NCBI RefSeq assembly: GCF_000832305.1
Contig: NZ_CP010537.1
Coordinates: 1,240,001 to 1,304,000 of the forward strand
Length of the DNA stretch: 64,000 nucleotides
Direction of reading: 5' to 3'
Source: Cupriavidus basilensis
Lineage (GTDB): Bacteria > Pseudomonadota > Gammaproteobacteria > Burkholderiales > Burkholderiaceae
Shown piece after piece: positions 43,901 through 62,665 of the stretch. The notes under the pieces were generated by a model. The model was not told where the DNA came from. It did not search any database and saw only the letters and a list, made by a program, of their open reading frames with translations. The position numbers were made by a program, and so were the translations under genes. How positions within the stretch are numbered: position 1 is the first letter of the stretch; every line of letters begins with the position of its first letter.

Positions 43901-43924
43901 TATACTTGTCAGCATGCTAACAAG
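43901..43924 (+). promoter_or_regulatory. picR promoter -10 and operator
   Basis: A TATACT -10-like hexamer (43901-43906) runs into the near-perfect 20-bp palindrome CTTGTCAGCATGCTAACAAG (43905-43924), whose core TCAGCATGCTAA matches the motif found before every pic-island unit. The operator overlaps the -10 and start point, 14 bp before the MarR start codon, which fits autorepression. Confidence 0.7.
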
Positions 43925-43937
43925 TTTGGTGAGTTGA

Positions 43938-44468
43938 ATGTCCTCTGCAAAACGTCAAACGACGCGCTCCGCTGCTCCGATCGAGGATCCGGTGCAGTCC
44001 GAAGCGGACCCGGCCAAGGAGCTGCTCTGGGCGCGGCCCGGCTTCCTGGTGCGTCGCCTGCACCAGATCCACGTGGCCATGTTTTTCGAGGAATGCAAGT
44101 CTCCCAGCATCACGCCGGTGCAGTACGCCATCCTGACGGTATTGTCCGTGCTGCCGGGGCTGGACCAGACCGCGTTGGGGCAGGAAGTTGGTTTTGACCG
44201 CACCACTACCGCCGACGTGGTGCGCCGGCTGGAAGAACGTGGCCTGGTCGAGCGCAAGGACAATCCGGCCGACCGCCGCATGCGCCACGTGCACCTGACC
44301 AAGGAAGGGCAAACCGTGGTGGCGTCGCTGCGCGCGGACATGGAGCGTGCGCAGGAGCGCATGCTGGCACCGCTGCGCCCGGCGCAGCGCAAGGTGTTCA
44401 TGGACTTGCTGTCGACGCTGGTCGAGGCCAACAACGACTATAGCCGCACCGTGTTGCGCATCATGTAG
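43938..44468 (+). CDS. picR: MarR family regulator of the picolinate island (PicR/NicR-like)
   Basis: A 176-residue MarR repressor. The winged-helix core runs from about 55 to 125: PSITPVQYAILTVLSVLPG, TALGQEVGFDRTTTADVVRR and ERKDNPADRRMRHVHLT. The N-terminal RPGFLVRRLHQIHVAMFFEE is like NicR of nicotinate degraders and PicR of Alcaligenes. Loss of repression on binding a pyridine acid or intermediate is known for this group. The gene has its own operator, and nine copies of the motif across the island imply it is the local master repressor. It is convergent with the Rieske genes. Confidence 0.88.
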   Translation: MSSAKRQTTRSAAPIEDPVQSEADPAKELLWARPGFLVRRLHQIHVAMFFEECKSPSITPVQYAILTVLSVLPGLDQTALGQEVGFDRTTTADVVRRLEERGLVERKDNPADRRMRHVHLTKEGQTVVASLRADMERAQERMLAPLRPAQRKVFMDLLSTLVEANNDYSRTVLRIM

Positions 44469-44475
44469 GGACAGC

Positions 44476-44496
44476 GCGCCGGCATGGCGCCGGCGC
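44476..44496. terminator. Hairpin between convergent picR and Rieske genes
   Basis: A perfect 8-bp GC stem, GCGCCGGC (44476-44483) with GCCGGCGC (44489-44496), and loop ATGGC, lies in the 43-bp gap between two convergent transcripts. There is no T tract on either strand, so it is a probable but unproven bidirectional stop. Confidence 0.5.
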
Positions 44497-44511
44497 CTGG
44501 ACTACACCTGC

Positions 44512-45060
44512 TCATACCGGATAGACCAGGTCGTTGGCGATGATGGTGGTGTCGTACACGACCTGGCGCTCGGCCAGCAGCAGCTTGCCCTCGATGCGGG
44601 CGAAGCGGTCGTGATACGTGCCCGCCATGTGGATGGTGGTGGGACCCTCGACCAGCGTTTGCAGCAGCAGGAAGCTGGCCTGCGCCTGGATCTCGCCATA
44701 CTCGCTTTCATCGGTGACGCGCGTATTGGTGACGAGGTGCAGCATATAGCGCGGCGCGAACATCTGGGTGCGCGCAATCGCCACCGCCCGGTCGTGCATC
44801 ATGCCGCGGCCTTCGGCATAGACCAGCCCCACCGGCAGCCCGAGTTCCACGTTCTCCCGTGCGGTGACGCGGTAGATGCAATCCTCGGTAAAGAACTCGG
44901 GCCACGTTTCCACCATGCCGGCATCGAGCACGGCGCAGTATTCGCTGTGGAAGGCGTCGATCTCCATGCGCAGCGCTTGCGCGCGCGCGGGGGCCAGCTT
45001 GCAGGGGCGAAAGAGGCTATGGGCCATCGGTGTCATGGTTGGGGTGATTGTCAGTGTCAT
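44512..45060 (-). CDS. Rieske hydroxylase small (beta) subunit, PicB component
   Basis: A 182-residue ring-hydroxylating dioxygenase beta subunit of the NTF2-like fold, with FHSEYCAVLDAG, FFTEDCIYRVTAREN and the C-terminal AERQVVYDTTIIANDLVYPV (strands packing on alpha). It is structural in the alpha-beta hydroxylase. It is last in the minus-strand order ferredoxin - reductase - alpha - beta, 5 bp after alpha. The start at 45060 has no strong ribosome site, so it may rely on coupling; ATGs at 45036 and 45027 are alternatives. The four-component set matches the 6-hydroxypicolinate 3-monooxygenase of the pic pathway. Confidence 0.9.
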   Translation of the reverse strand: MTLTITPTMTPMAHSLFRPCKLAPARAQALRMEIDAFHSEYCAVLDAGMVETWPEFFTEDCIYRVTARENVELGLPVGLVYAEGRGMMHDRAVAIARTQMFAPRYMLHLVTNTRVTDESEYGEIQAQASFLLLQTLVEGPTTIHMAGTYHDRFARIEGKLLLAERQVVYDTTIIANDLVYPV

Positions 45061-45065
45061 GCGGC

Positions 45066-46355
45066 TCAGAACCCCATCACGCTGCGGTAGTACTGGTACA
45101 TGGCGCGGATCGCGGACTCCGAGATCAGCGAGTTGGCGGTGCCCACGTGTCCGGGATCGAGCTTCAGCACATTGCGCTCGGTGCTGGAGCGGCGCACGCC
45201 CTCCTGCACGAACTTCATCGCCTCGTTGTCCTCCAGGCCAAGGAAGCCGGCCGGGCCCATCAGGTTGCCCTGGCGCAGGCGGTGGCGCGTCATCTCCTCG
45301 GTGTCGTCCTCATAGCCGAACATGGTCCACTGCATCAGCATGCTGTCCGGGCCGTTGGGCACGATCTGGCGCACGCCCAGCGTGTTCATCTCGCGCTGCA
45401 CGATCAGGTTCGGCCAGATGGTCTGCATGGTGACGGACCACGGCGAATCGAACTCCTTGATGTACTCGAGGAAGCGGTCGTCCTGCAGGCGCATGCCTTC
45501 GTGGTAGGAGCGCATCTCCTTCTTGTTCTCGTCGCTCACCGCCGCGTACTTGTCTTCCTTCTTGGCCGAGGCCATGGTGCCGTGGCGGCCGTGCACCGGG
45601 TCCGCGATCATGGCGGAGTCGTTGCCGGCGACCAGCAGGCCAAACACCACCAGGAAGGAGTGCAGCAGCGTGGCGTGGTACGGGTCCTTCAGGTTCTCGT
45701 GGTACATCTTCCAGTTGCAGGGCAACTCGTTCTTGTAGTACCCGAGGATCTTGAGCGGCTTGCCGTTGAACACCACGTCGAAATCCTTGAGGATTTCCGG
45801 CGTCATATACACGTCCAGCGGTTCCATGTCGTTGGCGTAGGAGGCGAAGATCACTCCGTTGCGCGTGGCCACGTTCAGCTTCACCAGGCCATGGTCTTCA
45901 TTGCGGAAGTCCTTGGGCATGCCGCCGGCACGATTCACGCCGCGCTTGAACGGCACACCCTGCAGGTTGCCTTTCAGGTCGTAGGACCACTGGTGATACG
46001 GGCAGACGAACTCCTTGGCGTTGCCCTGGCCATGCCGGCAGAACTCCGCGCCGCGGTGTGCACAGCGGTTCTCGAAGACATTGACGCTGCCGTCTTCAGC
46101 GCGCGCCACGACCACGGGTGTCGGCCCGACGTAAGAGCGCTTGAAGTCGCCCGGGTTGGGAATCTCGGCCTCGAGCGCGACGAAATTCCATGAGCGGCCG
46201 CGGAAGATCTTCTCCAGTTCCAGGTCGTACACGGCATTGCTGGTGTACACCCAGTCCGGGATGAAATGCAGGGCGTCCTCCGGCCACTGGCAGGCGGCCA
46301 GTTCGGCATCCTTGGCGCGCGGCGTGCGGTTGATGACCGCATGGGTCTGGTACAT
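45066..46355 (-). CDS. Rieske hydroxylase large (alpha) subunit, PicB component
   Basis: A 429-residue oxygenase alpha subunit. The Rieske cluster ligands are Cys98 and His100 (RCAHRG) and Cys118 and His121 (CPYHQW). The mononuclear iron region reads ENLKDPYHATLLH with bridging Asp224 and ligands His227 and His232. It hydroxylates the ring of an aromatic acid using electrons from the adjacent ferredoxin and reductase. By analogy with PicB it should convert 6-hydroxypicolinate to 3,6-dihydroxypicolinate. GAGGAA precedes the ATG at 46355. Benzoate- or salicylate-type hydroxylase activity cannot be excluded by sequence alone, but the island context argues for a pyridine substrate. Confidence 0.9.
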   Translation of the reverse strand: MYQTHAVINRTPRAKDAELAACQWPEDALHFIPDWVYTSNAVYDLELEKIFRGRSWNFVALEAEIPNPGDFKRSYVGPTPVVVARAEDGSVNVFENRCAHRGAEFCRHGQGNAKEFVCPYHQWSYDLKGNLQGVPFKRGVNRAGGMPKDFRNEDHGLVKLNVATRNGVIFASYANDMEPLDVYMTPEILKDFDVVFNGKPLKILGYYKNELPCNWKMYHENLKDPYHATLLHSFLVVFGLLVAGNDSAMIADPVHGRHGTMASAKKEDKYAAVSDENKKEMRSYHEGMRLQDDRFLEYIKEFDSPWSVTMQTIWPNLIVQREMNTLGVRQIVPNGPDSMLMQWTMFGYEDDTEEMTRHRLRQGNLMGPAGFLGLEDNEAMKFVQEGVRRSSTERNVLKLDPGHVGTANSLISESAIRAMYQYYRSVMGF

Positions 46356-46369
46356 GTTTCGTTCCTCGT

Positions 46370-47656
46370 TCAGGATTGGGTCTCGCTCGCGCGCACGGCG
46401 GTGGCTTCGCGCGCCGCCTGCTTCAAGGGCAGGGCGGTGTCGCACAGCAAGCCGATATCGCAGGCGGTGCCTTGTTCGATCAGGTTGCGCAGCGGGCGCA
46501 GGTCGCCGCCCGCGTTGACGGCGATGGCGTGGCGCAGTTGTGCGCCGGCCATGCCAAGCAGCAGGAATCTGGGGGGCGTGTCGGCGCCGGGGGCTTCCAT
46601 GCTGCCGCGCAGCGTGTAGCGCAGCGCGGGGTCCATGGCGCCCAGCATCTGGATATTGCAGCCGAGCTGGTCGGTCCAGAACCAGGGCAAGGCGCTAGGG
46701 GCTGTCGGCACGCCGAGCATGGCGGCCGCGGCGATGCGGGCCTGCTCATTGGCGTTCTGCCACGACTCCAGGCGCATCTCCTGGCCAAACAACGGCTGGT
46801 ACTGGCTGGCGCAATCGCCGGCGGCAAACACACCCGGCGCGCTGGTGCGGCAGTGCGCGTCGACCTGGATGCCGCCGTTGCCCGGGTGGAGCGCAAGCCC
46901 GGCGGCCTCCGCCAGGCCCACATTGGGGTGCAGCCCGATGGCCACCACCGCCAGCGGCGCGCGCAGCGCGGTGCCGTCGGCCAGCATGACGGCAACCTCG
47001 TCCGCGGCCGGCGGGATCGACGCGATCCCGCAGCCCAGGCGCAGGTCGATGCCGAGGCCGCGCACGCGTTGCGCCAGCCAGTCCGAGAACACGCTCGGCA
47101 CGGCGCGCTGCAGCAACAGCGGCGCGGCTTCGACCACCGTCACCGCCAGCCCCATGGCGCGGGCGGTGGATGCGGTTTCCAGTCCAAGGAAACCGCCGCC
47201 GATCACCAGCACCGCGCGCTCACGGCGCAGCGCAGCCCGCAAGCCGCGCGCATCGGCGAGCGAGCGCAGGTAATGCACCCGGGGCTGCCCCTCGGGCAGG
47301 GCGGGCAGGGCGCGGGCACGCCCACCGGTAGCCAGCAGGCAGCGGCTGAAGGAAATCGCCTGGCCATCGGCGCAATGCGCCGTGGCGCTGGCGGGATCGA
47401 GCGAGGCCACGGTGGTGGCCAGGCGCAAGTCGATGCCTTGCTCGGCGTAGAAGCCCGGCGCGTGCACGCCGATGCGCTCGTCTTGCTGTTCGTCCGCCAG
47501 CACGGCCTTGGACAGCGGCGGGCGCTCATACGGCGCATGGGCCTCGCCGCCGACCATGACGATGCCACCGTCATGGCCCAGCGCGCGCAGCGCGGCTGCG
47601 GCCGTGGCGCCAGCCTGGCCGGCGCCGATGATCAGGATGGGAGCGTCCTGTGACAT
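46370..47656 (-). CDS. NAD(P)H:ferredoxin reductase (FAD), PicB component
   Basis: A 428-residue flavoprotein of the rubredoxin/ferredoxin reductase family (BphA4/CndA-like). An FAD Rossmann motif, IIGAGQAGATAA (9-20), a second NAD(P)H motif, VIGGGFLGLE, and the C-terminal FAD motif FAAGDCA are all present, followed by a reductase C-terminal domain. It passes electrons from NADH to the Rieske ferredoxin next to it. It lies 14 bp before alpha and 9 bp after the ferredoxin gene. Confidence 0.92.
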   Translation of the reverse strand: MSQDAPILIIGAGQAGATAAAALRALGHDGGIVMVGGEAHAPYERPPLSKAVLADEQQDERIGVHAPGFYAEQGIDLRLATTVASLDPASATAHCADGQAISFSRCLLATGGRARALPALPEGQPRVHYLRSLADARGLRAALRRERAVLVIGGGFLGLETASTARAMGLAVTVVEAAPLLLQRAVPSVFSDWLAQRVRGLGIDLRLGCGIASIPPAADEVAVMLADGTALRAPLAVVAIGLHPNVGLAEAAGLALHPGNGGIQVDAHCRTSAPGVFAAGDCASQYQPLFGQEMRLESWQNANEQARIAAAAMLGVPTAPSALPWFWTDQLGCNIQMLGAMDPALRYTLRGSMEAPGADTPPRFLLLGMAGAQLRHAIAVNAGGDLRPLRNLIEQGTACDIGLLCDTALPLKQAAREATAVRASETQS

Positions 47657-47665
47657 GGCCGGCGC

Positions 47666-47983
47666 TCAGGCGGTGACCATGACATCGACCAGGACATCGC
47701 TGTCCACGATCTTGACCGGGTAGACCTTGATGCCCTGGGTGGCGGGCGCGCACATGGCCTGGCCGGTGCGGATATCGAAGCGCGCCTGGTGCAGCGGGCA
47801 TTCGATGCAGCCATCTTCCAGGTAGCCGTCGGACAGCAGCGCGTACTGGTGCGTGCAGACGTTGTCGGTGACGAAGTACTCCCCTTCGCTGCGGTACAGG
47901 GCCAGCTGCGCTTCGCCAAGCGTGAGCGGCATCACTTCATCGTCCTGAAGCTGGCCGGTGGTGGCGATCTTGGTCCAAGCCAT
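47666..47983 (-). CDS. Rieske-type [2Fe-2S] ferredoxin, PicB component
   Basis: A 105-residue soluble Rieske ferredoxin. Cluster ligands are Cys43 and His45 (NVCTHQYA) and Cys62 and His65 (CPLHQARF). It shuttles electrons between the flavoprotein and the oxygenase. It is the first gene of the operon, with AAGGAG close before the ATG and a very short leader: the nearest operator ends only about 16 bp upstream of the start codon. Confidence 0.94.
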   Translation of the reverse strand: MAWTKIATTGQLQDDEVMPLTLGEAQLALYRSEGEYFVTDNVCTHQYALLSDGYLEDGCIECPLHQARFDIRTGQAMCAPATQGIKVYPVKIVDSDVLVDVMVTA

Positions 47984-47999
47984 GATGCATCTCCTTTAA

Positions 48000-48033
48000 T
48001 CAGTATGCTGAGTATTAATGATCAGTGTACTGA
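48000..48033 (-). promoter_or_regulatory. Paired PicR-type operators at the Rieske operon promoter
   Basis: On the minus strand the order is TCAGTACACTGA, a 10-bp AT-rich spacer TCATTAATAC, then TCAGCATACTGA. Plus-strand coordinates are 48022-48033 and 48000-48011. The spacer most likely holds the -10 (TTAATA or TAATAC), so bound repressor would sit on both sides of it; no strong -35 is seen. The two site centres are 22 bp apart, two helical turns. Confidence 0.78.
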
Positions 48034-48057
48034 TTTAAATTGCCGACTGAATCAGCG

Positions 48058-49116
48058 TTAACCCTCGAGTGTCGCCGAGGTGGCGGAATGGCCGTGCAGG
48101 GGCGTGGCGGCGCTGTCCGGGGCAGGGCGCGCCAGTGCGGCCCGGCGCTCCAGCAGGGCTTGCACCTCGCCCATGATGCCGCGGCGAAAGGTGAGCACGC
48201 AGACCACGAAGATCAGGCCTGTGACCATGCTGACCGACTCGCCCAGCGTATTGAACCAGTCCACGCCCGTCATCGCGGCCAGGCTGCTGCCGGCATCGCC
48301 GAGCTTGTTCTCGACCGCGACGATCACCAGCGCGCCCAGGATCGGCCCGGACAAGGTGCCCATGCCGCCCACCAGCGTCATCAGGATGACGGATCCGGAC
48401 ATGGCCCAGTGCACGTCGGTCAGCGTGGCAAAGCCGAGCACCAGCGTCTTCAATGCGCCTGCCAGGCCCGCCAGCGCGGACGACAGCACAAAGGCCAGCA
48501 GCTTGAACCTGTCCGTGTCATAGCCCAGCGAGATGGCGCGCGGCTCGTTTTCCTTGATGGCCCGCAGCACCTGGCCGAAGGGCGAGTTCACCACCCGCGC
48601 GATCAGCAGCAGTGCGGCGCCGGCCACGATGGACACCACGTAGTACATCGTCAGGTCGCCTTCCAGCGAGATCAGCCCGAACAGGCTGCCGCGCGGCACC
48701 GCCTGCAAGCCGTCCTCGCCGCCCGTCACCGGAGCCTGCAGGCAGAAGAAGTAGAACATCTGCGCCAGCGCCAGCGTCACCATCGCAAAGTAGATGCCCT
48801 GGCGCCGGATCGCCAGCGCGCCGAAGGCCAGGCCGAGCAGCGCGCCGAACGCCGTGCCGGCCAGCAGCCCGAGCTCCGGCGTGGCGTGCAGGGATTTCAT
48901 CACGTAGCCGCAGGCGTAGGCCGCGCCGCCAAAGAACGCGGCATGGCCGAATGACAGCAGCCCGGTAAAGCCCAGCAGCAGGTTGAAGGCGCAGGCAAAC
49001 AAGGCGAAGCACATCAGTTTCATCGCCAGCACCGGGTAGGCGCCGAGCAAGGGTGCAAGCGCGACGGCCGCCATCAGCAGGGCGCCGGTCAGTCTTGCGC
49101 GAGAGTCAGAGGTCAT
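48058..49116 (-). CDS. livM: Branched-chain-type ABC permease LivM
   Basis: A 352-residue inner-membrane permease of the LivM family: about ten hydrophobic segments, and the family patterns FNLLLGFTGLLSFGHAAFFG and AIKENEPRAISLGYDTDRFK (the coupling loop to the ATPases). Its ATG shares one base with the livH stop (TAATG). The unit also encodes LivH, LivF, LivG and a binding protein. Because the promoter carries PicR-type sites, the substrate is probably picolinate or a related pyridine acid rather than leucine. Confidence 0.92.
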   Translation of the reverse strand: MTSDSRARLTGALLMAAVALAPLLGAYPVLAMKLMCFALFACAFNLLLGFTGLLSFGHAAFFGGAAYACGYVMKSLHATPELGLLAGTAFGALLGLAFGALAIRRQGIYFAMVTLALAQMFYFFCLQAPVTGGEDGLQAVPRGSLFGLISLEGDLTMYYVVSIVAGAALLLIARVVNSPFGQVLRAIKENEPRAISLGYDTDRFKLLAFVLSSALAGLAGALKTLVLGFATLTDVHWAMSGSVILMTLVGGMGTLSGPILGALVIVAVENKLGDAGSSLAAMTGVDWFNTLGESVSMVTGLIFVVCVLTFRRGIMGEVQALLERRAALARPAPDSAATPLHGHSATSATLEG

Positions 49117-50000
49117 TATTTTTCCTTTCCGAACAGGCCGGCGGGGCGCACCATCAGCACGCACACCATGGCCACGAAGACGACGGTTGCCGAGGCTTCC
49201 GGGTAGAACACCTTGGTCATGCCTTCGAACACGCCCAGGCCCAGCCCGGTGAAGATGGAACCAAGGATCGAGCCCATGCCGCCGATCACCACCACGGCGA
49301 ACACGGTGATGATCAGGTTCTGGCCCATCAGCGGCGAGATCTGCATCACGGGCGCGGCCAGCACGCCGGCAAAGGCGGCCAGCCCCACGCCGAAGGCGTA
49401 GGTCAGCGTCACCAGCAACGGCACGTTGATGCCGAATGCTTCCACCATGCGCGGGTTCTCCGTGCCGGCGCGCAGGTAGGCGCCAAGCCGCGTCTTCTCG
49501 ATCACATACCAGGTGGCGAAGCACACCACCAGGGAGGCCGCCACCACCCAGGCTCGGTAGTTGGGCAGCACCATGAAGCCCACGCTGGTGGCGCCCGTCA
49601 GCGCTTCGGGCGTGGCGTAGGACAGGCCGGAGACGCCATACGCCGAGCGCAGCAGCCCTTCGATCAGCAGGCAGATGCCTAGCGTCAGCAGCAGGCCATA
49701 GAGGTGATCGAAGCGATAGAGCCGGCGCAGCATGGTGCGCTCCAGCACCACGCCCAGCACGCCGGTGACGAGCGGGGCGAGGATCAGCATCAGCCAATAG
49801 CTCAGCCCCAGGTAGGCCAGGCCCATCCAGGCCAGCACGGCGCCCAGCATGAACAGGGCGCCATGGGCAAAGTTGATGATATTGAGCAGGCCAAAGATGA
49901 CTGCCAGCCCAAGGCTCAGGATGGCGTAGAACGAGCCGTTGACGAGTCCGAGCAGCAACTGGCTCAGCAGGGCGGGCATGGGTATGCCAAAAAATTCCAT
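49116..50000 (-). CDS. livH: Branched-chain-type ABC permease LivH
   Basis: A 294-residue partner permease with about eight helices, NGSFYAILSLGLAVIFGLLN near the start, NFAHGALFMLGA and the GTENPRMVEAFGIN coupling loop. It forms the transmembrane pore with LivM. It follows livF by 12 bp. Confidence 0.92.
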   Translation of the reverse strand: MEFFGIPMPALLSQLLLGLVNGSFYAILSLGLAVIFGLLNIINFAHGALFMLGAVLAWMGLAYLGLSYWLMLILAPLVTGVLGVVLERTMLRRLYRFDHLYGLLLTLGICLLIEGLLRSAYGVSGLSYATPEALTGATSVGFMVLPNYRAWVVAASLVVCFATWYVIEKTRLGAYLRAGTENPRMVEAFGINVPLLVTLTYAFGVGLAAFAGVLAAPVMQISPLMGQNLIITVFAVVVIGGMGSILGSIFTGLGLGVFEGMTKVFYPEASATVVFVAMVCVLMVRPAGLFGKEK

Positions 50001-50012
50001 GACGATGGTTCC

Positions 50013-50771
50013 TTACACGCCAAGCAGGGCGTTCAGCGTGGGCATCTTGCGCGCGAGCGCGCTGGCGTCGAAGCACTCCACCATGCGCCCGTGCTCCATC
50101 ACGTAGAAGCGATCAGCGAGTGGCGCGGCGAAGCGGAAGTTCTGCTCCACCATGACGATGGTGTAGCCGCGTTTCTTGAGCGTGGTGATCATGCTGGCGA
50201 GGGTCTGGACGATGACGGGGGCCAGGCCTTCGGAGATTTCATCGAGCAGCAGCACGCTCGCGCGGGTGCGCAGGATGCGGGCGACGGCCAGCATCTGCTG
50301 CTCGCCGCCCGACATGCGCGTGCCCTGGCTCTTGCGGCGTTCCCACAGGTTGGGGAACATCGCGTAGATCTCGTCCAGCGGCATCGGCTCGCGGCCCGAC
50401 GTTGCAACGTCAGGCTTGAACACCGGCGGCAGCATCAGGTTTTCCTCGCACGACAGGCTGGAAAAGATCGCGCGTTCCTCGGGGCAATAGCCCAGGCCCA
50501 GCGGCGCGATGCGGTGTGTCTTCATGCCGATGGTCTCGGTGCCGTTGACGCGGATCGAGCCCTTGCGGGCGCCGGCCAGCCCCATGATGGCGCGCATGGT
50601 GGTGGTGCGGCCCGCGCCGTTGCGGCCCAGCACGGTGACGACCTCGCCCGGGTTGACGCGCAGGTCCACGCCGTGAAGGATGTGGGATTCGCCATACCAG
50701 GCGTGCAGGTCCTGGATCTGCAGGGCCGGGGTGGGCTGGCTCGTGGGTTGGTTCGTGAGTTGGCGCATCAT
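50013..50771 (-). CDS. livF: ABC transporter ATPase LivF, Walker A Lys replaced by Arg
   Basis: A 252-residue nucleotide-binding subunit. The Walker A motif reads GRNGAGRTT, with Arg55 where Lys is normal; the signature is RMSGGEQQ, Walker B LLLDEISEGLAP, and the switch His is replaced in VMVEQNF, as is usual for LivF. Some LivF relatives in this order are known to carry the same Lys-to-Arg change, so it may still bind ATP while LivG does most hydrolysis. The start is the first of an ATGATG overlapping the livG stop. Confidence 0.9.
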   Translation of the reverse strand: MMRQLTNQPTSQPTPALQIQDLHAWYGESHILHGVDLRVNPGEVVTVLGRNGAGRTTTMRAIMGLAGARKGSIRVNGTETIGMKTHRIAPLGLGYCPEERAIFSSLSCEENLMLPPVFKPDVATSGREPMPLDEIYAMFPNLWERRKSQGTRMSGGEQQMLAVARILRTRASVLLLDEISEGLAPVIVQTLASMITTLKKRGYTIVMVEQNFRFAAPLADRFYVMEHGRMVECFDASALARKMPTLNALLGV

Positions 50772-51544: not shown

Positions 51545-51590
51545 GCGTGCTCCGCTTTTGGGTCTTGGCAGGTTGGTTCTGCATCGCGGC

Positions 51591-52829
51591 TCACTTCTTC
51601 ACCAGTGCGCATTCGCTGGCGGACAGCGGGCGGAATGCCGAGTCGCCGGGGATGGTGCCGAGGTACTTGACCAGGTCCCACGGGCCTTTCGACTCCGCCG
51701 GCGTCTTGGCCTGCGCCAGGTACATGTCATGCACCATGCGGCCATCCACGCGCACCTTGCCGGCATGCACGAAGTCGTCGTTGACCGCGAGGGCACGCAT
51801 CTTTTCCGCCACCGCCGGGCCATCCACCGTCCTGGCCGCCTCAACCGCCTTCAGGTAGTGCAGCACACCGGAATACACGCCGATCTGCCCGTGCGTCGGG
51901 TAAGCCTTGTGCTTGGCGTAGAAGCGCTCCACGAAGGCCTTCGACCTGGCGTCGAGGTCGAGCTTGAACGGGTCCACATAGGTCAGGCCCTGCGCCACGC
52001 CGGGGCCCAGGCTCTTCAGGTCGGTGATGAAGGTCGACGGCGTGATCACGGTCTGTCCGCCCTTGATCAGGCCGAACTCGCCCGCGGCCTTGACGCCGTT
52101 GATCATGTCGTTGCCGGCGTTGGCCAGCACCACCACCTTGGCCTTGGACGCAGAGGCGGCCACGATGGGGCTGCTGAAATCGCTGGCGTTAAGCGGATGC
52201 TTGGTGCTGCCCACGTTCTTGCCGCCGCTGGCCTCCACCTCCTTGCGGAAATCCGCTTCCAGCGACTGGCCCAGTGCGTAGTCCACGGTGATGTAGTACC
52301 AGCTGTTCTTGCCGTCGGCGATCAGCCGCTTGACCAGCGGCGCCGACACTGAATACGTATCCCAGCCCCAGTGAAAGCCGGTGGGCGAGCAGTTCTGGTT
52401 GGTCAGCGCCATGGCGCCGCCGGTGGAGACGATATTGATCTTCTGCTTTTGCCTGGCGATTTCCTGCACCGCCAGCGCGGTGGAGGAGTTGGGGAAATCG
52501 ATCACCATGTCCACGCCATCGGTGTCGAACCAGCGGCGCGCCAGCGACGAGGCGATGTCCGCCTTGTTCTGGTGGTCGCCGGAGAGCACCGTGACCGGCT
52601 TGCCGAGTGCCTTGCCGCCGAACTCGTCCACGGCCATCTGCGCCGCGAGCACCGAGCCGCGGCCCGAGAGATCGGCGTAGGAGCCGGACATATCGGTGAT
52701 CACGCCAACCTTGACGCCGTTGGCATCCGCCAGCGCGGAGGTGCTGCATAGCAGGGCGATCAGGGCGGGGATCAGCGCAGAAACCGGGGCAGAAACCGGG
52801 GTATGGCGTGCGTTGTGCAGAGACTTCAT
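51591..52829 (-). CDS. Periplasmic substrate-binding protein of the Liv-type importer
   Basis: A 412-residue type I periplasmic binding protein (LivJ/amide-urea-like group). A signal peptide (about 1-34, ending STSALA) precedes VGVITDMSGSYADLSGRGSV and GDHQNKADIASSLARRWFD. It is the first gene of the transporter operon. The paired PicR-type operators 78-110 bp upstream link its expression to pyridine catabolism. The ligand is therefore inferred to be picolinate or a hydroxylated form. Confidence 0.92.
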   Translation of the reverse strand: MKSLHNARHTPVSAPVSALIPALIALLCSTSALADANGVKVGVITDMSGSYADLSGRGSVLAAQMAVDEFGGKALGKPVTVLSGDHQNKADIASSLARRWFDTDGVDMVIDFPNSSTALAVQEIARQKQKINIVSTGGAMALTNQNCSPTGFHWGWDTYSVSAPLVKRLIADGKNSWYYITVDYALGQSLEADFRKEVEASGGKNVGSTKHPLNASDFSSPIVAASASKAKVVVLANAGNDMINGVKAAGEFGLIKGGQTVITPSTFITDLKSLGPGVAQGLTYVDPFKLDLDARSKAFVERFYAKHKAYPTHGQIGVYSGVLHYLKAVEAARTVDGPAVAEKMRALAVNDDFVHAGKVRVDGRMVHDMYLAQAKTPAESKGPWDLVKYLGTIPGDSAFRPLSASECALVKK

Positions 52830-52906
52830 GGGGGCGCTCCAGACAGGGTGAATTGGGGTTCGGGAACCGGGGTGGAAAACCAGATGGCTTCGTCTTGGTG
52901 CAGCGT

Positions 52907-52939
52907 TCAGTATGCTGACTATTAAATACAGTGTACTGA
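52907..52939 (-). promoter_or_regulatory. Paired PicR-type operators at the ABC importer promoter
   Basis: Minus-strand order: TCAGTACACTGT (52928-52939), a 9-bp AT-rich spacer ATTTAATAG, then TCAGCATACTGA (52907-52918). The arrangement is almost the same as before the Rieske operon, with a -10-like TTTAAT or TAATAG between the sites. Confidence 0.78.
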
Positions 52940-53005
52940 GCAAATTTCGCGCCAGAGGACGAAGCCGGGCTACAGGGCTACAGGGCTACAGGGGGCACGG
53001 CGGGC

Positions 53006-54610
53006 TCAGGTATCCAGGTTGCGGCCACGGGTCTCGGGCACGAACACCATGCCGACGACAAAGGCGATGGCGGCGATCGAGACCGGATACCAGAGGCCGA
53101 AGTACACATTGCCGCTGGACACGTTCATCGCCGTCACGACGAACGACAGCATGCCGCCCACCCAGCCCGCACCGAGGTGGAAGGGCAGGGACAGCGACGT
53201 GTAGCGGATGCGCGCCGGGAACAGCTCGACCATGAACGCCGCCAGCGGGCCGTACACCATGGCGAGCAAGAGAATGGGGATCAGCAACATCAGGAACAGC
53301 ATCGGGCGGTTGATGGCGGCCGGGTCTGCATGCTCTGTCCAGCCGGCGGCCACCAGCGCCTGCTTGATCGCCGCTTTGTCAAAGCCCTGCAGCGTGGTGC
53401 CGCCGATGCGCAAAGCAGGCTGCGCGCCGGCATCGATCTGCGTGAATTCGTAGCCGACGCCAAGATCCGTCAGGTAGCCCTTGACCTTGTCGCACGCCGA
53501 CACCGGCTCGGCAAACAGGCGGAAGTGGCAATCGCCGGCGCGCAGCTGCACCGTGTTGCGCTGCTGGAACTGCTCCAGCGCCGGGTTGGCGTAGTGCGTC
53601 AGCGCCCTGAAGATGGGCTGGGTGGTCAGCGCCGCCAGCAGGCAGGCGGCCATCATGATGTGCTTGCGGCCGATCCGGTCCGACAGCCAGCCGAAGAACA
53701 GGTAGCAGGGCGTGGCGATCACCAGTGCGATGCCGATCAGCAGGTGCACCAGCTCCAGCGGCACGTGCAGCGTCTTGTTGACGAAGAACATCGTGTAGAA
53801 ATGACCAGTGCCGAAGATGGCGCCGAGCCCGGATGCCACCACGAACAGCAGCAGCACGTACTTCAGGTTGGCCCAGTTCGTGAAGCTGTCCAGGATGGGG
53901 GATTTCGACGTGGCATTGCCGGCCTTCATGCGCGCGAAGATCGGCGACTCATGCAGCTTGCCGCGGATATAGACCGACACCACCAGCATCAGGAACGAGA
54001 CCAGGAACGGCAAGCGCCAGCCCCATTCGCGGAACTGCGCCTCGGTGAGCAATGTCTTGAGCAGGTACACGACCAGCAGCGACGAGAGCAGGCCGAGTGT
54101 GGCCGTGGTCTGCAGGGAACTGGTGTAGAGGCCGCGTTTTTCCACCGGAGAATGCTCGGCGACGTAGGTCACCGCGCCACCCACTTCGCCGCCCAGCGCC
54201 AGCCCCTGCAGCAGGCGCAGCACCACCAGCAGGATGGTGGCGGTGATGCCGATCTGGCCATAGGTGGGTAACAATCCGACGCCCACCGTGGCGATCCCCA
54301 TGAGCAGGATCGTCACCAGGAAGGTGTGCTTGCGGCCGATCTTGTCGCCCAGCCGGCCGAACAGCAACGCCCCGACCGGGCGCACCAGGAAGCCCGCGCC
54401 GAAGGTGGCAAGGCTGGCGAGGAAGGCCGTGGTCTCGTTGCCGGGCGGGAAGAACAATGCACCAAAGTAGACCGCCAGCGCCGCGTAGATGTAAAAGTCG
54501 TACCACTCCATCAGCGCCCCGAAGGACGACGCGAGGATCACCTTGCGTTCTTCCCTTGTCATGCCCTGCTTGCGCACGGCGGCACCGTCATTGGCCAGGC
54601 TGATCGTCAT
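53006..54610 (-). CDS. MHS-type MFS permease with a ~100-residue periplasmic insertion
   Basis: A 534-residue transporter of the MHS family: EWYDFYIYAALAVYFGALFF in TM1, GRLGDKIGRKHTF in loop 2-3 and RLLQGLALGGEVGG in TM4. MHS permeases usually have 420-450 residues. The extra length is an insertion of about 98 residues (338-436) between TM9 and TM10, predicted periplasmic, with Cys361 and Cys373 that might form a disulfide. It ends as usual with FVPETRGRN. It has its own PicR-type paired operators and is probably a second uptake route for picolinate or an intermediate. Confidence 0.88.
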   Translation of the reverse strand: MTISLANDGAAVRKQGMTREERKVILASSFGALMEWYDFYIYAALAVYFGALFFPPGNETTAFLASLATFGAGFLVRPVGALLFGRLGDKIGRKHTFLVTILLMGIATVGVGLLPTYGQIGITATILLVVLRLLQGLALGGEVGGAVTYVAEHSPVEKRGLYTSSLQTTATLGLLSSLLVVYLLKTLLTEAQFREWGWRLPFLVSFLMLVVSVYIRGKLHESPIFARMKAGNATSKSPILDSFTNWANLKYVLLLFVVASGLGAIFGTGHFYTMFFVNKTLHVPLELVHLLIGIALVIATPCYLFFGWLSDRIGRKHIMMAACLLAALTTQPIFRALTHYANPALEQFQQRNTVQLRAGDCHFRLFAEPVSACDKVKGYLTDLGVGYEFTQIDAGAQPALRIGGTTLQGFDKAAIKQALVAAGWTEHADPAAINRPMLFLMLLIPILLLAMVYGPLAAFMVELFPARIRYTSLSLPFHLGAGWVGGMLSFVVTAMNVSSGNVYFGLWYPVSIAAIAFVVGMVFVPETRGRNLDT

Positions 54611-54663
54611 GGTCGTTTCTCTCCGGGGGCAGGTCAGCCTGCCCGTGTGTGTGCTCCACACTG

Positions 54664-54697
54664 TCAGCATGCTGAATAATTTCAATCAGTGTACTGA
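54664..54697 (-). promoter_or_regulatory. Paired PicR-type operators at the MFS permease promoter
   Basis: Minus-strand order: TCAGTACACTGA (54686-54697), a 10-bp AT-rich spacer TTGAAATTAT, then TCAGCATGCTGA (54664-54675). It repeats the Rieske and importer promoter plan. The nearest site is 54 bp upstream of the permease start. Confidence 0.78.
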
Positions 54698-54742
54698 GCA
54701 GAATTTGTCAGTGTTATGGGGGTTAACCCTTTTGGCTCCGGC

Positions 54743-54791
54743 TAGACATTCCTCAACCTCGTTGCTATATTAAAAATGCTCAGCATACTGA
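54743..54791 (+). promoter_or_regulatory. Promoter and PicR-type operator of the lower-pathway operon
   Basis: A good sigma70-like promoter, TAGACA (54743-54748), a 17-bp spacer and TATATT (54766-54771), is followed by a single operator TCAGCATACTGA at 54780-54791. The operator covers about +2 to +13, a classical repressor position. The leader to the picC ATG is about 85 nt. Confidence 0.75.
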
Positions 54792-54865
54792 TCAATTAGC
54801 TAGACCCGAGCTAGACCCGTGCTAGCCCCCCAGCAAGCCCCCACCCAGACAGGAGTCGCCACAGC

Positions 54866-55828
54866 ATGACGAGAATTCGGAAGATTGCCCTGGAAGAGCA
54901 CTTCATGGCCCCCGGCTTCCAGGCCTATTCGAAGGGATACCTCCAGCACATCGACGCAGCGGTCATGGCCGATCTCGCCAGGCGCCTGGCGGATTTCGAC
55001 GACATCCGCATTGGCGAGATGGACCGCGCCGGCATCGATATCACCATCCTGTCGCAGACCGGCCCGGGCGTGCAGGGCGAGACGGATCGCGTCGCCGCCA
55101 TTGGCCGCGCCCGTGAGAACAACGACTTCCTGGCGGCGCAGGTGGCGCGCCACCCCACGCGCTTCGCCGGCTTTGCCGCGCTGCCGATGCATGACCCCGC
55201 GACCGCCGCGCAGGAGTTGGAGCGCGCCGTGACGCAGCTTGGCTTCAAGGGCTCGCTGGTCAACGGCCATACGCAGGGCGTGTACTACGACGATCCTTCC
55301 TATGACGTGTTCTGGGAGCGCATGCAAGCGCTGGACGTGCCCATGTACCTGCATCCGGCCGATGCGTTTGTCGCGCCGCATGTGTATTCGGGCCATCCGG
55401 AAATCAGCGGCGCGGCCTGGGGCTGGGGCGTGGAGACGGCCAGCCACGCGCTGCGCCTGGTGTTCAGCGGCGTGTTCGACCGCTTCCCCCGGCTCAAGCT
55501 CATCCTTGGCCATATGGGCGAAGGGCTGGCGTTCCAGCGCTGGCGCTTCGACAGCCGCTTTGCGGTGTACTCGCATGGCATCAAGCTGGCGAAGAAACCG
55601 TCGGAATACATCGGCAGCAATATCGTGATCACCACGTCGGGCGTGTGCTCGCCGGCTGCGCTGAATGGCGCCATTGCCGAGATGGGCGCGGAGGCCGTGC
55701 TGTTCTCGGTCGACTATCCCTACGAATCCACGGCGATCGCGGCGGATTTTATCGAGCAGGCGCCGATGGACGAGGCCACCCGCCGCCTTGTCTGCCATGG
55801 CAATGCCGAACGCATTCTCAAGCTTTGA
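54866..55828 (+). CDS. picC: Amidohydrolase-2 family decarboxylase, 3,6-dihydroxypicolinate type
   Basis: A 320-residue metal-dependent non-oxidative decarboxylase related to gamma-resorcylate decarboxylase. The metal and catalytic residues line up: Glu10 and His12 (ALEEHF), His163 (MYLHPAD), His216 (LGHMGEG) and Asp283 (FSVDYPYES). In the pic pathway PicC removes CO2 from 3,6-dihydroxypicolinate to give 2,5-dihydroxypyridine. Here it is the first gene of a plus-strand operon with the ring-opening and maleamate steps, and its promoter has a PicR-type operator. CAGGAG lies before the ATG. The reaction is assigned from family plus context. Confidence 0.9.
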   Translation: MTRIRKIALEEHFMAPGFQAYSKGYLQHIDAAVMADLARRLADFDDIRIGEMDRAGIDITILSQTGPGVQGETDRVAAIGRARENNDFLAAQVARHPTRFAGFAALPMHDPATAAQELERAVTQLGFKGSLVNGHTQGVYYDDPSYDVFWERMQALDVPMYLHPADAFVAPHVYSGHPEISGAAWGWGVETASHALRLVFSGVFDRFPRLKLILGHMGEGLAFQRWRFDSRFAVYSHGIKLAKKPSEYIGSNIVITTSGVCSPAALNGAIAEMGAEAVLFSVDYPYESTAIAADFIEQAPMDEATRRLVCHGNAERILKL

Positions 55829-55851
55829 ACCCCGAAACAACGGAGCGCCCC

Positions 55852-56604
55852 GTGCAAAAGACTTTCCGGATCGGCCAGATCGTGCCGAGTTCCAACACCA
55901 CGATGGAAACCGAAATCCCCGCGATGCTGCTCGCGCGCCAGCAGGTGCGGCCCGAGCGGTTCACCTTCCACTCCAGCCGCATGCGCATGAAGAAGGTGGT
56001 CAAGGAAGAGCTTGCCGCGATGGACGGCGAGTCCGACCGCTGCGCGCTGGAGCTGAGCGACGCCCGCGTCGATGTGCTGGGCTATGCCTGCCTGGTGGCC
56101 ATCATGGCGATGGGCCACGGCTATCACCGCGTCTCGGAGAAGCGCCTGCAGGCCCATACGGCGGCCAACGGCGCCGACGCGCCGGTGGTCACCAGCGCCG
56201 GTGCGCTGATCGACGCGCTCAAGGTGATCGGCGCCAAGCGTATCGCCGTGGTCGCGCCCTACATGAAGCCGCTGACCGAACTGGTGGTGGACTACATCCG
56301 CAACGAAGGCTACGAAGTGGTGGACTGGCGCGCGCTGGAAATCCCCGACAACCTTGAGGTCGGCCGCCACGACCCCGCCAGGCTGCCCGGCATCGTCGCG
56401 CAGATGAACACCAGGGATGTGGACGCCATCGTGCTGTCCGCCTGCGTGCAGATGCCATCCCTGCCGGCGGTAGCCAAGGTCGAAGCGATGACTGGCAAGC
56501 CGGTCATCACCGCCGCCATCGCCACCACCTACGCCATCCTCAAGCAGCTCGACCTGGAGCCCGTGGTGCCGGGCGCTGGCGCCTTGCTCTCGGGCGCTTA
56601 CTGA
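55852..56604 (+). CDS. picG: Maleate cis-trans isomerase
   Basis: A 250-residue Asp/Glu racemase-superfamily enzyme that turns maleate into fumarate, the last step before the TCA cycle. The two catalytic cysteines are Cys80 (LGYACLVAIM) and Cys198 (LSACVQMPS), and the N-terminal VPSSNTTMETEIP binds substrate. The start is GTG at 55852 with CGGAG before it. The same activity is called NicE in nicotinate clusters. In Alcaligenes picG was reported outside the main cluster, whereas here it is the second gene of the lower operon. Confidence 0.93.
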   Translation: MQKTFRIGQIVPSSNTTMETEIPAMLLARQQVRPERFTFHSSRMRMKKVVKEELAAMDGESDRCALELSDARVDVLGYACLVAIMAMGHGYHRVSEKRLQAHTAANGADAPVVTSAGALIDALKVIGAKRIAVVAPYMKPLTELVVDYIRNEGYEVVDWRALEIPDNLEVGRHDPARLPGIVAQMNTRDVDAIVLSACVQMPSLPAVAKVEAMTGKPVITAAIATTYAILKQLDLEPVVPGAGALLSGAY

Positions 56605-56605
56605 G

Positions 56606-57451
56606 ATGAGTACCTTTGTTTGCGGCGGCAACGTACACGCCAACGGCATCCGCCAGCACTATCTCCGCTATGGCGGCCGCTGCGGCGAGCGCGTGACGCG
56701 CGATCCGGTGATCGTGGTGCCGGGCATCACCAGCCCGGCCATCACCTGGGGCTTCGTTGGTGCTCGCCTGGGCGAGCAGTTCGATACCTATGTGCTGGAT
56801 GTGCGCGGACGCGGCCTGTCGTCTGCGTCTGACACGCTGGACTACAGCCTGGACGCCCAGGCGGCCGACGTGTTGGCATTCGCGCAGGCGATGAACCTGC
56901 CCAGCTACAGCGTGGTGGGCCATTCGATGGGTGCGCGCATCGGCATCCGTGCCGCACGCGGCCAGCCTGCCGGGCTGGCGCGGCTGGTGATGGTGGATCC
57001 GCCGGTGTCCGGTCCGGGCCGGCGCGGCTATCCCGCGCAGCTCGCCTGGTATGTGGACTCCATGGCGGTGGCGCGCCACGGCGTGGACATCGAGACCATG
57101 CGGCGCTTCTGTCCCACCTGGACCGACGAGCAACTGGCGTTGCGCGCCGAATGGCTGCACACCTGCGACGAGCGCGCCGTGCTGGCCAGCTTCCAGGGCT
57201 TTCACACCGACGATGTGCACGCCGACTTGCCGGGCATTGGCATTCCCGCCTTGTTGATGGTGGCCGGCCGTGGCGATGTGGTGCGCACGGAGGATATCGA
57301 AGAGATTCGCGGGCTGCTGCCGCAGCTTGAAGTCAGCCATGTGCCGGGCGCCGGCCACATGATTCCCTGGGACGACGAGGACGGCTTCTACAACGCGCTG
57401 GGCGCCTTCCTCGGCGCCGAAATCGTCCCCCGGCAACAGGCCGCGGCCTGA
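56606..57451 (+). CDS. picE: N-formylmaleamate deformylase (alpha/beta hydrolase)
   Basis: A 281-residue alpha/beta hydrolase like NicD/PicE, which hydrolyses N-formylmaleamate to maleamate and formate. The triad is Ser107 (VGHSMGAR), Asp131 (MVDPPVSG) and His251 (GAGHMIPWDD); the oxyanion loop is VPGITSPAITW. It starts one base after the isomerase stop, so it is coupled. Released formate must be handled elsewhere, as no formate dehydrogenase is seen in the window. Confidence 0.92.
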   Translation: MSTFVCGGNVHANGIRQHYLRYGGRCGERVTRDPVIVVPGITSPAITWGFVGARLGEQFDTYVLDVRGRGLSSASDTLDYSLDAQAADVLAFAQAMNLPSYSVVGHSMGARIGIRAARGQPAGLARLVMVDPPVSGPGRRGYPAQLAWYVDSMAVARHGVDIETMRRFCPTWTDEQLALRAEWLHTCDERAVLASFQGFHTDDVHADLPGIGIPALLMVAGRGDVVRTEDIEEIRGLLPQLEVSHVPGAGHMIPWDDEDGFYNALGAFLGAEIVPRQQAAA

Positions 57452-57490
57452 ACTGCCGATCTGCCGATCGACCGATCATGAGGAGAGAAC

Positions 57491-58537
57491 ATGCCAGTCA
57501 GTGACCACGCCCTGATCCAGGCCTGGAAACAGGTCCTCACGCTGTCCCGGCTCGCGCCCGGGCAGACCGTCACCATTCTTACCAGTGCCGCCACGCATCC
57601 GCAGACGCTGTCTTGCGCGCTGGTTGCCACTCAGGCGATGGGCGCCATCGTCAATCGCCTGGACCTGCCGCCCGTCAACGCGGACAAGGCCTTGAGCCGC
57701 GATCCGCTGGCTTACCTGGGCACGACGGCGCTCACCGGCAACCGCGCGGCCATTGCCGCGCTCAAAGAGAGCGACCTGGTGCTGGACCTGATGACGTTGC
57801 TGTTCTCGCCCGAGCAGCACGATATCCTCAAGACCGGCACCAAGATCCTGCTGGCGGTGGAGCCGCCCGAAGTGCTGGTGCGCATGGTGCCCAGCGAAGC
57901 CGACCGCGAGCGCGTGAGCGCCGCCAACGCGCGGTTGTCACGCGCGAAGGAGATGACGGTGACATCTGACGCGGGCACCGACCTGCGCTGCCCGCTCGGC
58001 GAGTTTCCCGCCATCAGCGAGTACGGTTTCGTCGACGAGCCGGGGCGCTGGGATCACTGGCCCAGCGGCTTCGTGCTGACCTGGCCGAACGAGGGCGGCG
58101 CGAGCGGGCGCATCGTGCTGGACCGTGGCGACATCCTGCTGCCGCAGAAGGGCTACGTGGCGGACCGGGTGGCGCTGACGGTGGAACGCGGCTTTGCCAC
58201 ACGCATCGAAGGTGGCCTGGACGCCGAGTTGCTGAACGACTACATGGCGTCGTTCAACGATCCGCAAGCCTATGCCATCTCGCACATCGGCTGGGGCCTG
58301 CAACCGCGCGCGCGGTGGTCCACGCTGGGCCTGTATGACAGGGAAGCCTCGATCGGCATGGACGCGCGCGCCTACGAGGGCAATTTCCTGTTCTCGCTCG
58401 GCCCCAACAACGAGGCAGGCGGCCGCCGCACCACCGCCTGCCATATCGATATCCCGTTGCGCAACTGCACCGTGAGCCTGGACGGCGAGGAAGTGGTCCG
58501 GCAAGGCAAGGTACTGGACGGATGGAGCAGCAAATGA
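57491..58537 (+). CDS. picD: 2,5-dihydroxypyridine 5,6-dioxygenase
   Basis: A 348-residue Fe(II) extradiol-type dioxygenase with an M29 leucyl-aminopeptidase-like fold (NicX/PicD). The iron ligands fall at His265 (AISHIGWGL), His318 and Asp320 (ACHIDIPLRN), the same numbers as I recall for P. putida NicX. It opens the pyridine ring of 2,5-dihydroxypyridine to N-formylmaleamate. GAGGAGAG precedes the ATG. Its stop overlaps the start of the amidase gene. Confidence 0.94.
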   Translation: MPVSDHALIQAWKQVLTLSRLAPGQTVTILTSAATHPQTLSCALVATQAMGAIVNRLDLPPVNADKALSRDPLAYLGTTALTGNRAAIAALKESDLVLDLMTLLFSPEQHDILKTGTKILLAVEPPEVLVRMVPSEADRERVSAANARLSRAKEMTVTSDAGTDLRCPLGEFPAISEYGFVDEPGRWDHWPSGFVLTWPNEGGASGRIVLDRGDILLPQKGYVADRVALTVERGFATRIEGGLDAELLNDYMASFNDPQAYAISHIGWGLQPRARWSTLGLYDREASIGMDARAYEGNFLFSLGPNNEAGGRRTTACHIDIPLRNCTVSLDGEEVVRQGKVLDGWSSK

Positions 58538-59163
58538 CGAGACATGGCGAACTCCCCACCTACGAGCGCCAGGGCTTCGGCACGCAACTGCCGCTGCAGG
58601 GCCCCGCAGGCCTGCTGATCGTCGACTTCGTCAACGGCTTCGCCGATCCGGCGATGTTCGGAGGCGGCAATATCGGCGAGGCCATCGCCAACACGGTGCC
58701 GCTGCTGGACCACGCGCGGGCACAGGGCTGGGCGGTGGCGCACAGCCGCATCGTGTTTGCCGACGACGACGGCGATCAGAACATCTTCACGCTGAAGGTG
58801 CCCGGCCTGCTGACGCTGAAGGAGCAAGGGCCGGCCAGCGCGATCGTTGCGCAGCTGGCCGCGCGCGATGGCGAGCTGGTGGTGCGCAAGACCGTGCCGT
58901 CCGCATTTTTCGGCACGTCGCTGGCGGCGTGGCTGACGCAGCGCGGCGTGCGCACGCTGGTGGTGGCCGGCGCGGTCACCAGCGGCTGCGTGCGCGCCAG
59001 CGTGGTCGATGCCATGTCGCACGGATTCCGCCCGCTGGTGGTGTCGGACTGCGTGGGCGACCGCGCGCTCCAGCCGCACGCGGCCAGTTTGTTCGACATG
59101 GAGCAGAAGTACGCCGCGGTGATGCCGCGCGAGCAGGCGCTGGCGGCGCTGGCCCGGCTCTGA
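58534..59163 (+). CDS. picF: Maleamate amidohydrolase (isochorismatase family)
   Basis: A 209-residue cysteine hydrolase like NicF/PicF that converts maleamate to maleate and ammonia. The triad Asp31 (LIVDFVNGF), Lys119 (VVRKTVPSAF) and Cys152 (TSGCVRAS) is complete. The ATG at 58534 overlaps the dioxygenase stop (ATGA) with GGAG upstream; an in-frame ATG at 58522 is less likely. This step frees the ring nitrogen as ammonia. It is the last gene of the lower operon. Confidence 0.93.
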   Translation: MTRHGELPTYERQGFGTQLPLQGPAGLLIVDFVNGFADPAMFGGGNIGEAIANTVPLLDHARAQGWAVAHSRIVFADDDGDQNIFTLKVPGLLTLKEQGPASAIVAQLAARDGELVVRKTVPSAFFGTSLAAWLTQRGVRTLVVAGAVTSGCVRASVVDAMSHGFRPLVVSDCVGDRALQPHAASLFDMEQKYAAVMPREQALAALARL

Positions 59164-59260
59164 GCGGCGCCCGGTGCGCACGCTGATGCGCACCATGCGC
59201 GTGCATCGGCTGAAGCCCCAATTGACGGACGCGGCCTGTTTCGTCAATGTGTCGATAAGC

Positions 59261-59272
59261 TCAGTGCACTGA
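59261..59272 (+). promoter_or_regulatory. PicR-type operator upstream of the Mo-hydroxylase operon
   Basis: A single perfect palindrome, TCAGTGCACTGA, lies 142 bp before the large-subunit ATG. A -35/-10 pair could not be set with confidence; TTGACG at 59222-59227 lacks a well-spaced -10. It suggests separate PicR control of the first pathway enzyme. Confidence 0.65.
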
Positions 59273-61823: not shown

Positions 61824-61829
61824 ACCATC

Positions 61830-62657: not shown

Positions 62658-62665
62658 GGGCCGCG

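What the first reader, a model, noticed from the sequence alone, without database searches (positions are those of the whole stretch)
43905..59272. Nine-copy MarR operator motif marks every promoter of the island
The 12-bp palindrome TCAGYRYRCTGA (one T-to-A edge variant) occurs at 43909, 48000, 48022, 52907, 52928, 54664, 54686, 54780 and 59261, always in a gap upstream of a pic-island gene and not seen elsewhere in the window. It covers the regulator, Rieske, ABC importer, MFS permease, lower-pathway and Mo-hydroxylase units. This defines a regulon from sequence alone.
Basis: partly seen in the sequence, partly recalled or inferred. Interest (0 to 1): 0.8.

Follow-up and report, generated by a model that had tools for sequence, protein, structure and literature searches.

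The report
PicR repressor sites across picolinate cluster
The nine short palindromes are real and are best read as binding sites through which one repressor switches a whole pyridine-acid (picolinate) degradation cluster; this kind of control is already known from a related bacterium, but here it has paired sites and an unexplained second conserved DNA element.

Summary
The motif is real. Genome-wide there are 30 exact places, 7 of them here; tandem pairs occur only here. The host is Cupriavidus-like. Of 148 related genomes 21 carry the tandem pair, all among the 23 with a PicR orthologue of about 78% identity or more. Sites recur at the same promoters in the 20 clusters compared, with few misses, and beside pic genes in other genera. 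Best reading: operators of a MarR repressor orthologous to PicR, over or next to predicted promoter elements. PicR of Alcaligenes faecalis JQ135 is published, so this is a new member of a known kind. Beyond the finding: the picR operator is degenerate in one half in 23 of 23; a second element, AGGGTTAAC, keeps a fixed register with the picB and MFS operators in 20 of 20; different importers adjoin the operators in different genera. Binding, ligand and transcription starts are untested.

The parts
43938..44468 (+). picR, MarR-family regulator (176 aa)
   Evidence: Pfam MarR 7.6e-14; the only match in its own genome at E<=1e-15
43909..43920 (+). degenerate operator TCAGCATGCTAA, 2 bp after the predicted picR -10 (TATACT 43901-43906)
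   Evidence: TATACT-N1-2-TCAG-N4 followed by CTAA (8) or CATA (15) in 23 of 23
48000..48011 (-). proximal operator of the picB (Rieske) unit
48022..48033 (-). distal operator of the picB unit, TCAGTACACTGA in gene direction; predicted -10 TAATAC at 48012-48017 lies between the two
   Evidence: distal sequence identical in 20 of 20
48057..48065 (-). second conserved element AGGGTTAAC, 32 bp (start to start) from the distal operator
   Evidence: 20 of 20
52907..52918 (-). operator of the ABC importer unit
   Evidence: exact in 19 of 20, one mismatch in 1
52928..52939 (-). imperfect partner operator (ACAGTGTACTGA on the + strand); a one-mismatch partner is seen in 4 of 20 only
54664..54675 (-). 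proximal operator of the MFS (MHS-type) permease
54686..54697 (-). distal operator of the MFS permease
54722..54730 (-). second conserved element AGGGTTAAC, 33 bp (start to start) from the distal operator
   Evidence: 20 of 20
54743..54771 (+). predicted picC promoter TAGACA-N17-TATATT
   Evidence: read by eye
54780..54791 (+). operator of the lower-pathway unit picCGEDF
   Evidence: an exact site in 20 of 20
59261..59272 (+). operator of the Mo-hydroxylase unit picA
   Evidence: exact in 16 of 19
44512..47983 (-). picB-like unit: Rieske oxygenase beta and alpha, reductase, ferredoxin
   Evidence: Pfam for alpha, reductase and ferredoxin; beta named from its translation and place
48058..52829 (-). 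branched-chain-type ABC importer: two permease, two ATPase and one binding-protein genes
   Evidence: Pfam for four of the five; the second permease assigned by place and translation
53006..54610 (-). MFS permease, metabolite/H+ symporter-like (below that model's cut-off)
54866..59163 (+). picC, picG, picE, picD, picF
   Evidence: Pfam amidohydrolase, alpha/beta hydrolase and isochorismatase for C, E, F and none for D; pic names given by gene order as in PMC10142695 and by recall
59415..63835 (+). picA: Mo-binding and FAD subunits and a 2Fe-2S-like subunit with a C-terminal extension
   Evidence: Pfam for the first two; the third read from its translation only

Best explanation
The motif is the operator of a PicR-type MarR repressor. 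PicR dimers sit on TCAG-YRTR-CTGA-like palindromes over or beside the predicted promoter elements and keep RNA polymerase off the units. The picB and MFS promoters carry two dimers about 22 bp (two helical turns) apart. A pathway pyridine acid (6-hydroxypicolinate in JQ135, recalled) releases PicR and the units come on together. PicR limits itself through a weaker, one-half-degenerate operator. Shown: sites, positions, conservation, co-occurrence with picR. Inferred: binding, repression, ligand, promoter positions, weaker affinity of the picR site.
For: Genome-wide confinement; tandem pair in 21 of 148 genomes, all among the 23 with a PicR orthologue, reversed-pattern control 0 in all 148. The two PicR genomes without pairs are G051, whose cluster is deleted, and G052 (86% complete), whose picR stretch is contained in the UYMMa02A locus L099, where no pic gene or site lies within about 10 kb either side. 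Occupancy in 20 clusters: picB pair 20/20, importer 19/20 exact, MFS 20/20, picC 20/20, picA 16/19; picR 23/23 degenerate. At least one exact site in each of nine further pic loci outside the genus: L103-L109, L113 and the G064 cluster L073/L091. In Variovorax the picB-unit site (one mismatch) lies exactly between TTGACG and GATAAT. The recognition-helix region is nearly invariant in the orthologues, and R39 and H45 align with BpsR Arg26 and His32, contacts of 6-hydroxynicotinate.
Against: No binding or expression data. Start sites are predicted by eye, and the picB promoter shows no good -35 in Cupriavidus. picA lacks a site in 3 of 19 relatives. The PicR-like gene of G062 (about 61%) has neither a pic cluster nor a good site nearby. 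At the picB promoter of five other genera (L103-L107) the best site has one mismatch. R39 and H45 are also invariant in the more distant MarR homologues aligned, so they do not single out PicR, and BpsR His23 aligns with Phe36. The substrate rests on gene order and PicC similarity; NCBIfam gave no match above its cut-off for any of 10 proteins.
Confidence: 0.87

Rival explanations
1. The palindromes are sites of another regulator (a global factor or a second MarR), and picR sits there by chance.
For: Binding untested; other MarR homologues exist in the relatives.
Against: The tandem pair is found in none of the 125 sampled genomes lacking a close PicR, which a general factor would not give; a site of this kind upstream of picR itself is kept in 23 of 23.
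Confidence: 0.06
2. The conserved palindromes are RNA hairpins or terminators rather than protein sites.
For: They are inverted repeats in intergenic DNA.
Against: TCAG-N4-CTGA would make only a 4-bp stem; the sites lie upstream of genes next to predicted -10 elements, often in direct tandem about 22 bp apart. I ran no folding test.
Confidence: 0.02
3. An addition rather than an alternative: composite control, PicR repression plus an unknown activator at AGGGTTAAC, about 56 bp (centre to centre) upstream of the proximal operator of the picB and MFS promoters.
For: AGGGTTAAC invariant in 20 of 20 at both promoters, starting 32 (picB) or 33 bp (MFS) before the distal operator position; the composite of operator and AT-N4-GTT in the same 21 of 148 genomes and no other, 36 places, reversed control 0; AAACCC-like sequence in a similar register in loci L105-L107; no good -35 at the Cupriavidus picB promoter while Variovorax and Polaromonas have TTGACG and no GTTAAC.
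Against: AGGGTTAAC occurs in 60 of 60 genus genomes sampled, with or without pic; 12 of its places that I read have several different ORF layouts (no families assigned); no factor identified and no other regulator recognised in the cluster; AGGGTTAAC itself is not at the picB promoters of the other genera; in L082 and L083 the distal MFS operator is decayed while the element stays; the AAACCC pattern was chosen after seeing the sequences.
Confidence: 0.4

Closest known systems
PicR and the pic cluster of Alcaligenes faecalis JQ135 (Xu et al. 2022, doi 10.1128/aem.00172-22; title seen in reference lists, paper not held, details recalled)
   Same: MarR gene with picB, picA and picCDEF homologues; the recalled operator TCAG-N4-CTNN, with variable right-hand bases, fits the sites here and partly the degenerate picR site (8 of 23 keep CT, 15 have CA)
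   Different: Recalled: three sites and four operons; here nine sites, tandem pairs, ABC importer and MFS units, and a second element
pic cluster of Bordetella bronchiseptica RB50 (PMC10142695; passages read)
   Same: picG between picC and picE; picR, picA and picB genes in one cluster
   Different: That paper characterises PicC; the passages I read give no operators
BpsR of Bordetella (PMC6837509, passages read; that PDB 6pco and 6pcp are BpsR is recalled)
   Same: MarR regulator of a pyridine-acid pathway; Arg and His ligand contacts align
   Different: Sequence match only 49 bits; His23 aligns with Phe36; the paper calls the exact BpsR recognition sequence unclear
PcaV (PDB 4fht)
   Same: Best sequence match among solved structures (85 bits)
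   Different: Regulator of another pathway (protocatechuate, recalled)

Membership tests
PicR regulon | MarR-family gene within a pic-like cluster | tested here: met
PicR regulon | TCAG-N4-CT palindromes upstream of pic units | tested here: met
   the JQ135 consensus is recalled
PicR regulon | sites conserved with the regulator across species | tested here: met
PicR regulon | orthology to JQ135 PicR by direct sequence comparison | not tested
   the JQ135 sequence was not retrieved; named relatives found are listed
PicR regulon | in vitro binding and release by 6-hydroxypicolinate | not testable with these tools
   needs protein
MarR family | winged-helix MarR domain | tested here: met
   PF01047 7.6e-14; MarR-type PDB matches
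BpsR-type 6-hydroxynicotinate sensor | Tyr15, His23, Arg26 and His32 contacts kept | tested here: not met
   Arg26 and His32 kept, His23 is Phe36, Tyr15 lies outside the alignment

The most novel reading that the evidence does not exclude
The picB and MFS promoters are rigid composite switches: an unidentified activator bound at AGGGTTAAC works with, or is gated by, two phased PicR dimers, with a related arrangement kept in Alcaligenaceae; the pic cluster would then be under dual control that the PicR model as I recall it lacks.
Probability: 0.4. Interest if true: 0.5.

Novelty: new member of a known kind. Interest (0 to 1): 0.4.

Why it matters
It gives a well-defined catabolic regulon for picolinate, a toxic pyridine acid, in Cupriavidus and other Burkholderiales. 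It shows one operator beside different importer types in different genera, and it exposes a second conserved promoter element that simple reporters could test.

Tried and rejected
Chance confined to the window: rejected by the genome-wide counts. Further regulon members: the 23 exact places outside the island mostly have CpG spacers and lie under long frames; no convincing extra member, but only 10 of the 23 were scanned for families, and CpG spacers do occur at some pic-adjacent sites of other genera (L073, L105, L107, L113), so the CpG argument is not absolute. A relaxed pair search gave one place outside the island, C1:1498925, with two mismatches, against one for the reversed control; not followed. 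AGGGTTAAC as a pic-specific word: rejected, 60 of 60 genus genomes have it. An early pattern for it, with CAG added downstream and one mismatch allowed, missed both island copies and gave fewer hits than its reversed control. Its third copy in this genome lies between a divergent SDR gene and a hydantoinase gene and pointed to no factor. A literature search for the 8-mer gave 86 papers, 10 listed, none evidently relevant by title and abstract opening. PicC at order level: 2 of 399 genomes at a strict cut-off, the own genome being one. NCBIfam gave no pic-specific names. PicR operators in print: searches showed no held paper that gives them; the library lacks most subscription journals.
Full report
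What is there. The window lies at C2:1240001-1304000 of an 8.42 Mb, two-contig genome. It is a Cupriavidus or very close: the nearest named relative of its PicR is C. basilensis OR16, 98%. The cluster holds a MarR gene, a Rieske oxygenase system, a branched-chain-type ABC importer, an MFS permease, lower-pathway genes and a molybdenum hydroxylase. That set fits the pic cluster described for Alcaligenes and Bordetella (PMC10142695, passages read). The substrate itself is inferred: NCBIfam had no match above its cut-off for 10 proteins, and PicC is 76% identical to a Bordetella protein annotated only as amidohydrolase.

The motif. All nine are intergenic in a cluster that is 5.2% intergenic, and every gap of 74 bp or more has at least one. 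Genome-wide, 7 of 30 exact places are here (pattern read backwards 3), and two sites in tandem (spacing 8-12) occur at three places, all here (reversed 0). Twenty of the 23 outside places have a CpG in the spacer. In the fetched Cupriavidus pic loci (38 stretches), 128 of 145 TCAG-N4-CTGA places have spacers CATA/TATG or TACA/TGTA, so the motif is tighter than TCAGYRYRCTGA; that count includes a few coding places and overlaps between adjacent stretches. Some pic-adjacent sites of other genera do have CpG spacers.

Across species. PicR orthologues of about 78% identity or more occur in 23 of 148 related genomes sampled. The tandem pair occurs in 21 of the same 148, all among the 23, with the reversed pattern at 0. 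I compared 20 of these 23 clusters; G048 (fragmented), G051 and G052 were left out. Exact sites: picB pair 20 of 20 (spacing 22 bp in 16, 21 in 3, 23 in 1), importer 19 of 20, MFS 20 of 20, picC 20 of 20, picA 16 of 19, one contig ending before picA. In G051 the cluster is lost between the Rieske alpha gene and picA3 while picR stays. Outside the genus, Variovorax, Polaromonas, Eoetvoesiella, Neopusillimonas, two Pusillimonas and Pigmentiphaga loci, G185 and G064 each carry at least one exact site next to pic genes or a neighbouring importer. At the picB promoter of L103-L107 the best site has one mismatch. A PicR-like gene of about 61% in G062 has no pic cluster and no good site nearby.

Promoter anatomy (predicted by eye; no start sites known). 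picR: TATACT, one or two bases, then TCAG-N4 followed by CTAA (8) or CATA (15), never CTGA, in 23 of 23. picC: TAGACA-N17-TATATT here and TGGACT-N17-TAGAAT in most relatives, with the operator about 8-10 bp downstream of the -10. picA: a TTGAC-type -35 upstream and the operator near the likely start. picB: one operator where the -35/-10 spacer should be, a TA-rich -10-like stretch, then the second operator; in Variovorax the spacer site lies exactly between TTGACG and GATAAT. Bound PicR would therefore block polymerase. The one-sided decay of the picR operator, kept in all 23, suggests weaker self-repression; this is inference.

Regulator. PicR's best solved relatives by sequence are PcaV (85 bits) and HosA (65), then MexR and the 6pcp chain (about 49 each), which I take to be BpsR (identity recalled, residue numbering agrees). 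Arg39 and His45 align with BpsR Arg26 and His32, which contact the carboxylate and ring nitrogen of 6-hydroxynicotinate (PMC6837509, passages; alignment), while BpsR His23 is Phe36 here. Both residues are also invariant in the more distant homologues aligned, so this supports a carboxylated aromatic ligand in general, not picolinate in particular.

A second element. AGGGTTAAC is invariant upstream of both the picB and MFS sites in 20 of 20, starting 32 or 33 bp before the distal operator position (in L082 and L083 that distal MFS operator is itself decayed). The composite of operator and AT-N4-GTT is found in the same 21 of 148 genomes, 36 places, reversed control 0. In this genome the 9-mer occurs three times, two of them here, against 17 for the word read backwards, but it is present in 60 of 60 genus genomes sampled, 2 to 19 times each, and the 12 places that I read have several ORF layouts, some shared between genomes (L117 and L119 agree in 194 of 200 bases). 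So the fixed geometry, not the word, is the evidence. In L105-L107 the word AAMCCCYWAT occurs four times, all next to PicR sites, three at 39 bp and one at 26; in Polaromonas L104 it occurs three times, one of them about 40 bp from the one-mismatch picB site and two elsewhere. I chose that word after reading the sequences, so it is a lead.

Importers. Sites stand near a TRAP solute-binding protein in Variovorax, Eoetvoesiella and G185, near an NMT1-type ABC binding protein in Pigmentiphaga, and at branched-chain-type ABC and MFS genes in Cupriavidus. Only 10 neighbouring proteins were scanned in the other genera.

Known or new. Recalled from the abstract of Xu et al. 2022: PicR of A. faecalis JQ135 is a MarR repressor binding TCAG-N4-CTNN palindromes and released by 6-hydroxypicolinate. 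The paper is not held; its title was seen in two reference lists. On that basis this is a new member of a known kind, with an enlarged operator set. The second element is the part I cannot match to anything known.

Noticed in passing
48057-48065 and 54722-54730: AGGGTTAAC, invariant in 20 of 20 relatives and in fixed register with the operators; factor unknown.
   Followed up: partly
L065 (G051): Cluster deleted between the Rieske alpha gene and picA3; picR and its degenerate operator remain as an orphan.
   Followed up: partly
L103, L105, L109, L113: Other importer types (TRAP, NMT1-type ABC) lie near the same operator in other genera.
   Followed up: partly
L115 (G000 C1:2208178): Third genomic AGGGTTAAC, between a divergent SDR gene and a hydantoinase gene, with TTGTGATCACAA nearby.
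   Followed up: partly
L109:9624-9656: A further exact tandem pair (21 bp apart) in Pigmentiphaga, about 350 bp upstream of picR and before a divergent reading frame; that frame was not identified.
   Followed up: no
62657-63835: The 2Fe-2S-like subunit of picA appears to carry a C-terminal CoxG-like extension (read by eye from the translation).
   Followed up: no
53006-54610: The MFS permease seems to have an inserted stretch of roughly 100 residues in its C-terminal half (read by eye from the translation).
   Followed up: no
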